Shown: positions 2,815-6,439 of the stretch, one piece after another
How the letters are laid out: each line of letters opens with the position of its first letter
Numbering within the stretch: position 1 is the stretch's first letter
Assembly: GCA_016550415.1 (NCBI GenBank)
Contig: JABXGU010000073.1
Coordinates: 1 to 8,673 of the forward strand
Direction: 5' to 3'
Origin: an archaeon
GTDB taxonomy: Archaea; Asgardarchaeota; Hermodarchaeia; Hermodarchaeales; Hermodarchaeaceae
DNA: 8,673 bases
The notes under the pieces: model-generated
Told to the model about the DNA's origin: nothing
Seen by the model: the letters and a program-made list of their open reading frames with translations, nothing else
The model's database searches: none
Made by a program: the position numbers and the translations under genes

Positions 2815-2821
2815 AAGAGGT
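2815..2821 (+). promoter_or_regulatory. Shine-Dalgarno-like site deciding the TTG start
   Basis: AGAGGT lies about 10 bases before TTG 2832 and partly matches the complement of the archaeal 16S rRNA 3' end. It supports the TTG start, which also places the signal peptide correctly. Confidence 0.5.
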
Positions 2822-2831
2822 TTAAAATAAA

Positions 2832-4673
2832 TTGGAGCGAAAAACAATCGTACAATTACTTGCAGTTGTAATGGTTTGTGCTCTCCTGCCATTCTTTCTA
2901 GCGCCAACAAGTGTTGGACAAGTGAATGCAAAATACAAGGCACCTGCTTGGGAAGGTTTTGATCCTACAGGTCCTTACGCCGATTCTGTTGTCTTCAAAA
3001 TAATCGGTGGTCAAGATGTAATGGTAGCTTCATTGCGAACAGGTGAAATCGATATTATCACAGACTTCATTGATGACGCAGCAATTATTGCTGAACTCGA
3101 AGCTGACCCCAATGTCGTCGTTGAGCAAACATTGAGGCGAGGTTTCGGGCACCTAACTTTCAACTGCTTGAACTACCCCTATACATTCCCTGAATTTCGC
3201 AGGGCAGTAAACCTTCTACTTGATAAATATGAATTCTCCGATATCATGTGGGGCGGCATTGGTTACCCACTTGACTCACCAATCCCAACGAACACTCCCC
3301 CATGGCACAACGATGCCGTTGAAGGAACATACTACGAGTCTGATATTCCTGCTGCCAGAGCAGCACTAGAGAGTGCTGGCTTCGAAGATCTTGACAGTGA
3401 CGGATACTACGAGGCACCCAACGGTGAATCATTCACCCTAAGAATTGCTTATCACCTTGTAGGTACCAACTGGCAAGCAGCCTGGCAATCAGCTCAAGAT
3501 GAGTTTGATGATGCAGGTATCAGAATGGAGACTATGCCTGTCGACTTCAACACCTACCTTGACCAGATGTACCAAATTCCACGTGCCTACGAAGCAATAG
3601 CTTTTGGATATTCAACAGGTCCTAATCCATTGTTCCTCTCTGAATTTAGAACTGAACTAATTCCAGAACCCTATGGTAACATATGGAACTGGTCCAACGA
3701 GGACTTTGACACAGCTGTAGAGAACATGCTTGCAGCCACCACAATGGAGGATGCATTGGACTACTGTTATGAAGCACAAGAAATCTTCGTGTACAACAGT
3801 CCATTAGTTGTTACCTACACCAACTTGAACGTTAACGCCATCCGAAATGACAGATGGACTGGCTGGATTAACGCCCCTGGTTGGTCAATTGGTATCAGCA
3901 ATGATTGGACTCCACAGGTTGTCAAGCTGAAGGAAGGCGCTGAAGGTCGTGACACAACCACTGGTACAGGTGGCACCTTCAACTCCATGCTTCCTGTTAC
4001 CATAGACACTCAAAACCCGTTGATGTCAACCTCATCATACGGTATCCACGTTCTTGACCAGATCTACACAAGTTTGGTTGGCTCCCTCAGCCCAATCGAC
4101 CTAGAGGTAACACCATATGGCAACGGTCTTGCCTCAGGCTGGACCCAGACACTAGTAAGCACTCCCTCTCCTCACTGGGAGTTCACCTTCACCTTGCATG
4201 AAAACGCCACATGGCATGACGGTGTTCCAGTAACTGCAGACGATGTTGTCTTCAGCTACAACTACATCGATGAAAATGAGATGCCCAACTTCATCAGCGC
4301 ACGTGCATATTTCGACTCAGTTGAGAAACTAGGCAATTTCCAGGTCAAGGTTGTCGCTACCTCTGACAGCTACTGGGCTTGGGAATACCTGCGAAGCTGG
4401 ACTATCCTTCCTGAGCACATTTGGGAAGGTATCGTGAACCCAATAACCTACACGAACCCAGTCCCGATTGGCTGTGGTCCATACAAGTGGGCTGAATACG
4501 TTGAGGGTGAATACATCAAACTTGACTTTCACGATGGCTACTTCCGTGGCGTCCTTGGACACCAACCAACTGAAGGAGGCCAAGTGAGCTTAGTCGGTCT
4601 CTACCTTGCTGTCGGAGTACTAGTAATTGTCGTGGTTCTTCTTGGCAGTGTCTGGTACCTGCGCAAGAAGTAG
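2832..4673 (+). CDS. family 5 (peptide-type) ABC solute-binding protein, apparently circularly permuted, C-terminally membrane-anchored
   Basis: This 613-residue protein resembles DppA/OppA-type extracellular binding proteins, which capture peptides or similar solutes for ABC importers. It starts with a signal peptide (about 1-33, ending VNA) and ends with a membrane helix (about 586-609) followed by RKK, so it should sit outside the cell on a membrane anchor. The order of its parts is unusual. Residues about 48-370 match what is normally the second half of the fold: SVVFKIIGG, SLRTGEIDII, FNCLNYPYTFPEFRRAVNLLLDK split across 110-132, and GGIGYPLDSPIP at 141-152. Residues about 380-572 match the normal first half: NPLMSTSSYGIHVLDQIYTS (395-414), the cluster-5 signature WHDGVPVTADDVVFSY (461-476), ILPEHIW and PIGCGPYKWAEYVEGEYIKL. 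Start is TTG with AGAGGT upstream; no other good start precedes the signal peptide. C-ending codons suggest strong expression. No permease or ATPase gene is in the window. Confidence 0.88.
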   Translation: MERKTIVQLLAVVMVCALLPFFLAPTSVGQVNAKYKAPAWEGFDPTGPYADSVVFKIIGGQDVMVASLRTGEIDIITDFIDDAAIIAELEADPNVVVEQTLRRGFGHLTFNCLNYPYTFPEFRRAVNLLLDKYEFSDIMWGGIGYPLDSPIPTNTPPWHNDAVEGTYYESDIPAARAALESAGFEDLDSDGYYEAPNGESFTLRIAYHLVGTNWQAAWQSAQDEFDDAGIRMETMPVDFNTYLDQMYQIPRAYEAIAFGYSTGPNPLFLSEFRTELIPEPYGNIWNWSNEDFDTAVENMLAATTMEDALDYCYEAQEIFVYNSPLVVTYTNLNVNAIRNDRWTGWINAPGWSIGISNDWTPQVVKLKEGAEGRDTTTGTGGTFNSMLPVTIDTQNPLMSTSSYGIHVLDQIYTSLVGSLSPIDLEVTPYGNGLASGWTQTLVSTPSPHWEFTFTLHENATWHDGVPVTADDVVFSYNYIDENEMPNFISARAYFDSVEKLGNFQVKVVATSDSYWAWEYLRSWTILPEHIWEGIVNPITYTNPVPIGCGPYKWAEYVEGEYIKLDFHDGYFRGVLGHQPTEGGQVSLVGLYLAVGVLVIVVVLLGSVWYLRKK

Positions 4674-4841: not shown

Positions 4842-5750
4842 TTGATTTGTCCTATGGAACAAGATGGTGTGCTTAGCTGGCGATTGCGTATACGATCGCT
4901 TTTCCCGCCTGTGCTAGCGATGATTTTGTCTATTCTTCTGACCTCAATGATAATTGCTTCTAATCCCCCTCTCTATGCCTTTGTATTTCCAGATGCAGCT
5001 GAATTGACCGAAGGGCTGTTAGTAATTGTACTTATTGGAGTTATTGGAGGCATCGCGACTTTAATAACGTTTAAAGTGTTTCAACATGGCGGCGAGTTGC
5101 TCAATCGAATAGTTATTGCGGTTTTTGTATCTCCTGTATTTTTCCTATTGACCATATTTGTTGGTCAGGCGATTCTTCTTCTCCTCTTTTTTCAAGGAAT
5201 GAATAACCTCCATTATTCATTTATTGCCATGGCATCGATTTTCTTTTCTTCAATGTCTCTTGTCCTGATTTTCACAGATGCACTGAGTCCATCGTTTCGC
5301 AATGTTGTATTCACAATCTACGGATTGATTCTTGGAGTATTCATTGGGTGCAGTCTTTCATGGTACGCTTCATTGGCCCTACTGATAGTATTAGGCGCAG
5401 AAGACACACTCTTCGCTACTAGACTTGGAAAAACTATTGTTGAAGCTGATCCACATCAACATGCTCGTGCTGCCTTTGCCTTCATGGTTGGACCAATCAT
5501 GATTGGCATTGGGGATCTTGTAGTCTATGCTGCCTTGGTCGCTTACGCTCTCCGCTTCTTTGGTTGGACCATTGCTTATGTGACGATGTTTACAATACTG
5601 ATTGGTTGTATTATTAATGCGCATCTTGTTTCTCGTCGTCCAAACCGTGTCTTGCCTGGTTTACCAATCCCGCTGATCTGCGCATTTGTACCTATTCTCT
5701 TTAGTCTGACACAGTTTATATTATTAGGCATGGGAATTGGTCTCTTCTAG
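4842..5750 (+). CDS. presenilin/signal-peptide-peptidase-like intramembrane aspartyl protease
   Basis: The product (302 residues) is very hydrophobic, with about nine membrane segments (roughly 22-40, 56-77, 88-117, 125-146, 154-172, 175-190, 212-235, 240-262, 271-298), the presenilin topology. It carries the family's three signatures in order and in the expected helices: a TM6 aspartate at D188 (LGAEDTLFA), the TM7 motif GIGD at 222-225 (D225), and a PAL-like motif LPGLPIP at 271-277 in TM9. In presenilin and SPP enzymes the two aspartates cut substrate helices inside the membrane. Two signature residues differ: ED replaces YD, and PGLP replaces PALP. The TTG start has AGGA seven bases upstream; ATG 4854 is the alternative. 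Prepilin peptidases share GxGD but lack the PAL-like motif, so they fit less well. The gene is 104 bp upstream of the Rab-like GTPase on the same strand. Substrates are unknown. Confidence 0.8.
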   Translation: MICPMEQDGVLSWRLRIRSLFPPVLAMILSILLTSMIIASNPPLYAFVFPDAAELTEGLLVIVLIGVIGGIATLITFKVFQHGGELLNRIVIAVFVSPVFFLLTIFVGQAILLLLFFQGMNNLHYSFIAMASIFFSSMSLVLIFTDALSPSFRNVVFTIYGLILGVFIGCSLSWYASLALLIVLGAEDTLFATRLGKTIVEADPHQHARAAFAFMVGPIMIGIGDLVVYAALVAYALRFFGWTIAYVTMFTILIGCIINAHLVSRRPNRVLPGLPIPLICAFVPILFSLTQFILLGMGIGLF

Positions 5751-5854: not shown

Positions 5855-6439
5855 TTGTCAAAACTTGCTCCAACTGATTTGCATGAGCAATTAACTTCTG
5901 ACTCGTCTGACTTTGGATTGAAAGTAGTCATGATGGGCGATGGACGAGTCGGTAAAACCTCCCTAGTTCTTCGATATACAAAGAACTCCTTTTCTCCTGA
6001 ATACAAACAATCACTTGGTGCTAGTTTTGCTGTCAAGGATTTAATGGTTGCTAAAAGGCAAGTAAAACTAGTCATTTGGGATATTGCTGGCCAACCTTCT
6101 TTTAATCAAGTAAGACGACACTATTACAGTGGCGCACATGGGGCACTACTTGTCTTTGATGTCACAACTCCCTCCAGTTTCATGACACTTCACAATTGGT
6201 ATAACGACTTTATCCAAGCGGTACCAGATGGTACAGTGATTCTAGTTGCCAACAAGGTTGATTTGGGGGAAAATCGGATGGTTCCCCAAGAAGCAGGGAA
6301 AATGCTGAGCGAATGGTGGAAAATCCCCTACATTGAAACCTCAGCTGCCACTGCTAAAGGTGTACAACAAGCTTTTGAAATTGTAGCCGCTCATGCACTA
6401 GAAAAAGCAGTCTCACAAGGAAATAACTTCTCTGATTAG
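5855..6439 (+). CDS. Rab/Ras-like small GTPase
   Basis: This 194-residue protein is a single small-GTPase domain with a 20-residue N-terminal extension. All five nucleotide-binding motifs are present: P-loop GDGRVGKT (28-35), switch I near YKQSLGASF (50-58), WDIAGQ (75-80, with the Q that positions the attacking water), NKVD (133-136) and ETSA (161-164). The stretch RRHYYSGAHGALLVFDVTTPSSF, split across 87-109, is Rab-like. Small GTPases switch between GDP and GTP states to recruit effectors, often at membranes. Oddities: the switch I threonine is a serine (S53), the G3 motif is DIAGQ in place of DTAGQ, and the C-terminus (SQGNNFSD) has no cysteine, so it cannot be prenylated in the eukaryotic way. 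Many Asgard genomes carry large families of such GTPases, which is the main hint to the host lineage. Its nearest same-strand neighbour is the presenilin-like gene. Confidence 0.93.
   Translation: MSKLAPTDLHEQLTSDSSDFGLKVVMMGDGRVGKTSLVLRYTKNSFSPEYKQSLGASFAVKDLMVAKRQVKLVIWDIAGQPSFNQVRRHYYSGAHGALLVFDVTTPSSFMTLHNWYNDFIQAVPDGTVILVANKVDLGENRMVPQEAGKMLSEWWKIPYIETSAATAKGVQQAFEIVAAHALEKAVSQGNNFSD

What the first reader, a model, noticed from the sequence alone, without database searches (positions are those of the whole stretch)
2832..4673. Naturally circularly permuted family 5 solute-binding protein
Seen: after the signal peptide the protein begins with sequence normally found past the midpoint of DppA/OppA-type proteins (SVVFKIIGG, LRTGEIDI, FNxxNYPYTFPEFRRAVN, GGIGYPLDSPIP). 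About 330 residues later come the motifs normally near the N-terminus (QNPLMSTSSYG, LDQIYTSLVG, WHDGVPVTADDVVFSY, GCGPYKWAEY), then a membrane anchor. The protein starts about where its own C-terminal soluble part stops in the canonical order (after the GPYK...EGEYIKL...GYF segment). Together the halves would make one complete fold. Inference: a circular permutation, possibly from an N-C-N-C tandem duplication that lost its outer halves. It would bring the membrane anchor next to a different lobe than usual.
Basis: partly seen in the sequence, partly recalled or inferred. Interest (0 to 1): 0.78.

Follow-up and report, generated by a model that had tools for sequence, protein, structure and literature searches.

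The report
Circularly permuted solute-binding protein
This archaeal nutrient-capturing protein appears to have the same overall shape as the well-known OppA/DppA transporter receptors, but its chain is cut and rejoined so that the usual back part comes first and the usual front part last, and many Asgard archaea, some other archaea and some bacteria carry proteins built in the same order.

The parts
2817..2821 (+). likely ribosome-binding site GAGGT, about 10 bases before the TTG start
   Evidence: read by eye in the upstream sequence printed
2832..4673 (+). gene of the permuted family 5 solute-binding protein, 613 aa
2832..2933 (+). N-terminal hydrophobic segment, probable signal peptide (about aa 1-34)
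   Evidence: sequence; predicted helix 2-22; no signal-peptide predictor was run
2961..3935 (+). first soluble part (aa 44-368), equivalent to the second part of canonical SBPs (AppA 208-520)
3936..3956 (+). linker (about aa 369-375) joining the canonical C-terminus to the canonical N-terminus
   Evidence: gap between the two structural matches
3957..4559 (+). second soluble part (aa 376-576), equivalent to the first part of canonical SBPs (AppA 17-213)
4593..4667 (+). C-terminal membrane anchor (aa 588-612), followed by the last lysine
   Evidence: predicted helix 588-612; hydrophobicity

Best explanation
The gene encodes a complete, naturally circularly permuted cluster C (family 5) solute-binding protein of an Asgard archaeon, probably Hermodarchaeota or close kin (inferred from its nearest relatives). 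The canonical ends were joined by a short linker and new ends opened in the surface loop after the strand ending ...GEYIKL..GYF and before ...DSVVFKI. Shown: the order, the presence of the whole fold in complementary parts, the conservation of order and cut point, and, in relatives, gene order with Dpp/Opp-type permeases and ATPases. Inferred: it is exported by the N-terminal signal, held outside the cell by the C-terminal helix, closes on its ligand like other such receptors, and hands it to a Dpp/Opp-type ABC importer encoded elsewhere in the genome. Because both new ends leave from one loop, the domain could hang from an N-terminal tether (Bacillota), a C-terminal helix or stalk (archaea) or a large fusion partner (subtilase fusions) in the same orientation. 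The origin was probably a tandem duplication followed by loss of the outer parts.
For: Reversed order. Complementary structural halves. Same order in 7 relatives at 45-78% identity (P0005 lacks its N-terminal end) and in 7 Hermodarchaeota contigs L001-L007 from 6 assemblies. PF00496 scan of 8 Asgard genomes: 55 of 82 genes permuted, the first piece starting at profile 143-148 in 45 of 55; the same scan of 8 other genomes, 124 matches, shows no such pattern. Complete order SBP, two BPD_transp_1 permeases, two ABC_tran/oligo_HPY ATPases in Bacillota L196 and L197; a permease directly after the SBP in L198, L199, L200 and L202 as well, not in L201, so 6 of 7 fetched Bacillota loci. Permeases beside permuted genes in Asgard L129, L130, L131, with ATPases in L129 and L131. 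Hydrophobic C-terminal segment in 67 of 74 Asgard and 19 of 25 Thermoproteota permuted proteins (overlapping loci not merged, some misses are proteins cut by the fetched DNA).
Against: No permease or ATPase lies in the window, and only 6 of 55 permuted genes in the 8 Asgard genomes lie within 5 kb of a permease, against 8 of 11 canonical ones: most may not serve an importer directly. No binding data; ligand class unclear (nearest solved relatives by sequence include chitin-oligosaccharide, mannoside and oligopeptide binders). Joint packing of the two parts was not checked with an order-independent aligner. No intermediate of the supposed duplication was found, and no remnant in the window.
Confidence: 0.85

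Rival explanations
1. A misassembled or chimeric contig, or two incomplete genes, produced the reversed order.
For: The window is a single 8.7 kb contig and no whole genome is held for it.
Against: Seven relatives at 45-78% identity and contigs from several assemblies have the same order and cut point; 120 of 120 proteins listed by a search with a broader permuted alignment have the order, though that query favours them.
Confidence: 0.01
2. The order is as described, but the protein is a surface receptor or scaffold that no longer takes part in ABC import (for example peptide capture for a protease, or sensing).
For: No transporter genes in the window; 49 of 55 permuted genes in the 8 Asgard genomes are not within 5 kb of the permease rows used; some permuted domains are fused to subtilase.
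Against: In 6 of 8 Asgard genomes exactly one permuted gene lies next to such permeases, and two Bacillota loci have complete operons; that orphan SBPs can share an importer is recalled, not tested.
Confidence: 0.25
3. The permuted form arose independently in Asgard archaea and in the Thermoproteota/Bacillota lineage at the same loop.
For: The free trees separate the two groups, with canonical proteins like those of ANME-1 next to the Asgard group (95*).
Against: Holding all permuted rows together gives a higher likelihood and is not rejected (+15.3, p-AU 0.686; +12.4, p-AU 0.625); the cut point is the same.
Confidence: 0.3

Closest known systems
AppA of Bacillus subtilis (PDB 1xoc) and other canonical SBP_bac_5 / cluster C binding proteins (OppA, DppA, NikA, chitin-oligosaccharide-binding protein)
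   Same: same sequence family and same fold, part by part
   Different: order of the two parts reversed; canonical ends joined by a linker; C-terminal membrane helix
TpMglB-2 (Tp0684) of Treponema pallidum, for which its authors propose the names Type Ic / cluster Bc (PMC4990184; passages seen)
   Same: a natural circular permutation of an ABC-importer solute-binding protein, in proteins thought to be tethered; its authors also raise a link with anchoring
   Different: cluster B glucose-binding protein, another family; here cluster C, in archaea and Bacillota
NCBIfam NF045467 Opp4A (best-scoring curated model)
   Same: same family, matches in two stretches
   Different: 102.2 bits against a cut-off of 650

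Membership tests
SBP_bac_5 (PF00496), cluster C solute-binding proteins | sequence match above Pfam's curated cut-off | tested here: met
   179.2 bits against 32.4
SBP_bac_5 (PF00496), cluster C solute-binding proteins | all of the fold present | tested here: met
   aa 44-368 = AppA 208-520 and aa 372-576 = AppA 17-213; two separate models, joint packing not superposed
SBP_bac_5 (PF00496), cluster C solute-binding proteins | canonical collinear order of the chain | tested here: not met
   hence a permuted variant of the family, not a canonical member
SBP_bac_5 (PF00496), cluster C solute-binding proteins | export signal and tether | tested here: inconclusive
   hydrophobic N-terminus and C-terminal helix by sequence, model and hydrophobicity; no signal-peptide predictor run
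SBP_bac_5 (PF00496), cluster C solute-binding proteins | encoded with Dpp/Opp-type permeases and ATPases | tested here: inconclusive
   not in the window; 6 of 55 permuted genes in 8 Asgard genomes; 6 of 7 Bacillota loci, two with the complete set
SBP_bac_5 (PF00496), cluster C solute-binding proteins | binds a solute and closes on it | not testable with these tools
   no binding data
TpMglB-2-like permuted cluster B proteins | cluster B (MglB-like) sequence family | tested here: not met
   the only Pfam family at E up to 0.001 is PF00496
Opp4A equivalog (NF045467) | score above the curated cut-off | tested here: not met
   102.2 against 650 bits

The most novel reading that the evidence does not exclude
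Family 5 solute-binding proteins contain an unrecognised, old topological class, cut at one fixed loop, that is shared by Asgard archaea, Thermoproteota and Bacillota and makes up most of the family 5 receptors in many Asgard genomes. There, many permuted receptors, some in tandem arrays and some fused to subtilases, serve one or few Dpp/Opp-type importers as capture modules; and the same fold has been re-cut at a second site several times independently.
Probability: 0.5. Interest if true: 0.75.

Novelty: new variant of a known kind. Interest (0 to 1): 0.66.

Why it matters
OppA/DppA-type proteins are among the best-studied transport receptors, and their chain order is normally taken as fixed. 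A large permuted class would show that the fold tolerates relocation of its ends in nature, offer natural comparisons for how end position affects anchoring, docking and closing, and give natural cut points for sensor design. It would also change how the uptake repertoire of Asgard archaea should be annotated, because collinear models match these proteins only in fragments.

Tried and rejected
Own-genome search: no genome is held. The first genome-contig scan, with the single protein, found no relative. Misassembly: rejected (independent relatives). Remnants of outer halves in the window: none; outside the gene the best stray match to a half profile has E 0.86, apart from the tail of the gene's own match seen again in an overlapping segment at E 0.11. 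Ligand inference from the Asp motif of dipeptide binders (motif recalled): it looks absent in the window protein by eye; I could not test what that means for the ligand. One origin of the second permutation (type II): rejected on the first tree (p-AU 5.7e-82, 9 rows), which still held L085, a doubtful row (a match in the same gene region crosses a TGA) that I dropped from the second tree; there starred branches still force at least 3 changes for 11 type II rows. L025 was labelled type I by the script but is cut by its contig end, so its type is open. In the control scan one pair at a contig start, G538:C159 (75-365, then 2-55), has reversed pieces with another cut; two neighbouring genes are the likelier reading. 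PMC2588589 names SBP_bac_5 and circular permutation in unrelated places (passages). A Hermodarchaeota paper, PMC8163825 (passages), mentions oligopeptide transporters; the passages say nothing on permutation. Searches for a report on family 5: in an open-licence library only; I saw listings, and passages of PMC4990184, PMC2588589 and PMC8163825, and read no paper in full.

Full report
What is there. Window 2832-4673 (+) is an ORF with a TTG start and 613 codons, preceded by GAGGT at 2817-2821 (read by eye). The protein has a hydrophobic N-terminus, two soluble parts and a C-terminal helix. Pfam finds only SBP_bac_5, in two stretches, 179.2 bits.

The cut. In 130 canonical proteins the gap between the two half-profiles is a loop of median 7 residues. 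Twelve permuted proteins that I printed end just before it and begin in it, most with GP[YRK] and then [VA]D, which resembles the canonical loop. In the 8-genome Pfam scan the first piece of the permuted genes begins at profile 143-148 in 45 of 55 and the second piece ends at 141-150 in 41 of 55. By OppA/DppA domain boundaries that I recall, this loop and both canonical ends belong to lobe I, so the anchor probably leaves the same lobe at another edge.

Not a misassembly. Seven relatives, 45-78% identical, keep the order (P0005 lacks its N-terminal end); two are named Promethearchaeota. A scan of genome contigs with a seven-sequence alignment found permuted genes in seven Hermodarchaeota contigs, L001-L007, from six assemblies (two contigs are of YT1_014). 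Of the 150 proteins held after two searches, 10 were permuted this way (P0001 and P0002 are identical), 3 had one half only, and the script called the other 137 canonical, one of which, P0081, is the second kind of permutation.

How widespread. Counts of genomes are mine, by hand, from listings that are cut off, so they are lower bounds; a match counts if it spans at least 500 positions of the permuted model. Phylum of a Hermodarchaeota genome (Asgard): at least 48 of 227. Phylum of a Thermoprotei genome, taken as Thermoproteota: at least 21 of 300 (one, G417, with an in-frame stop), and G228. Phylum of a Sutcliffiella genome (Bacillota): 11 of 199; in five of these the best row crosses in-frame stops. 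Phylum of a Methanosarcinales genome, taken as Halobacteriota: 0 among the listed matches of 196. By names, such proteins occur in Thorarchaeota, Odinarchaeota and other Promethearchaeota; all 120 listed proteins of a search with a broader permuted alignment are permuted, which the query favours.

Share within genomes. In 8 Asgard genomes that I chose because they had permuted hits, PF00496 gives 82 genes by my joining rule: 55 permuted at this loop (type I), 11 canonical, 3 of a second kind (type II) and 13 single pieces. In 8 other genomes (7 bacteria, 1 Methanosarcinales; 124 matches), all taken from loci of the relative search, none shows the 145-364 then 2-141 pattern; type II appears in G233, and G232 holds the type II locus L010; one pair at a contig start (G538:C159) is open but has another cut.

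Function. Beside permuted genes of G186, G193 and G049 lie BPD_transp_1 permeases, and in G186 and G049 also an ABC_tran/oligo_HPY ATPase (L129, L130, L131). In Bacillota L196 and L197 the order is permuted SBP, two BPD_transp_1 permeases, two ABC_tran/oligo_HPY ATPases; in L198, L199, L200 and L202 Pfam confirms a permease directly after the SBP; in L201 none is seen in the 8 kb fetched. All seven of these bacterial proteins end at the cut without a C-terminal helix. In the 8 Asgard genomes 6 of 55 permuted genes lie within 5 kb of a permease, one in each of six genomes, against 8 of 11 canonical and 1 of 3 type II genes (50 of 109 permease rows used). This suggests many receptors for few importers, or other duties. 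The window gene itself has no such neighbour: around it lie an aldehyde ferredoxin oxidoreductase, a presenilin-like ORF, a Ras-like GTPase, an NfeD-like protein and an M20 peptidase.

Fusions and arrays. In L122, L134 and L135 a permuted SBP of about 550 aa opens a protein of 2299-2578 aa with a subtilase domain; L122 reaches the edge of the fetched DNA. L125 holds six complete permuted genes in a row plus two cut ones, L124 four, L002 three, one cut by the contig end. Tandem arrays fit a duplication origin, but I found no intermediate.

History. On trees of the two parts aligned to fixed columns, the 24 Asgard permuted rows form one group (95*, 96*) and the Thermoproteota rows, joined by the Bacillota ones in the second tree, another (94; 97*), which also holds one type II protein, L165. 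Forcing all permuted rows together raises the likelihood and is not rejected (+15.3, p-AU 0.686; +12.4, p-AU 0.625). So one origin is possible and not shown. These are quick trees with long branches.

A second permutation. Type II proteins are cut near Pfam position 280-298: L009-L013, L016, L023 and L027 in bacteria; L029 of Natrialbaceae; L203 in the Bacillota set; L204-L206, probably haloarchaea; L159, L165 and L174 in the Thermoproteota set; P0081; and three genes of G054. One origin of type II is rejected on the first tree (p-AU 5.7e-82), with the caveat of one doubtful row.

Known or new. Natural permutation of an ABC-importer binding protein is known for TpMglB-2, a cluster B protein (PMC4990184; passages seen). 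Nine searches of an open-licence library found no report for family 5; subscription papers were not searched.

Noticed in passing
L009 2456-4102, L010 5297-6946, L011 960-2555, L013 958-2553, L016 1682-3274, L204 729-2477, L206 933-2702, P0081: A second kind of circular permutation of family 5 SBPs, cut near Pfam position 280-298, in bacteria, probable haloarchaea and other archaea; one origin is rejected by an AU test that included one doubtful row.
   Followed up: partly
L122 2-7705, L134 2798-10531, L135 3184-10080: Giant Asgard proteins (2299-2578 aa; L122 may be cut) in which a permuted SBP domain is followed by a subtilase (Peptidase_S8).
   Followed up: partly
L196, L197, L198, L199, L200, L202: Bacillota loci in which a permuted SBP without C-terminal helix is followed by Dpp/Opp-type permease genes, with both ATPases confirmed in L196 and L197.
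   Followed up: partly
L125 359-12216: Tandem array of six complete permuted SBP genes, with cut ones at both ends, in one Asgard contig.
   Followed up: partly
L002 3648-5639 and 5860-7872; P0005: Some permuted SBPs carry a short cysteine-rich, zinc-ribbon-like tail after the membrane helix (by eye).
   Followed up: no
L165 881-2929: A type II permuted protein that falls among type I proteins in the trees: possibly a re-cut of an already permuted protein.
   Followed up: partly
window 4842-5750: Multi-pass membrane ORF with a presenilin match below Pfam's cut-off (25.8 against 34.3 bits) and a GIGD motif of the GxGD kind (motif recalled, seen by eye).
   Followed up: no
window 5855-6439: Ras-family small GTPase, usual for Asgard archaea (recalled).
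   Followed up: no
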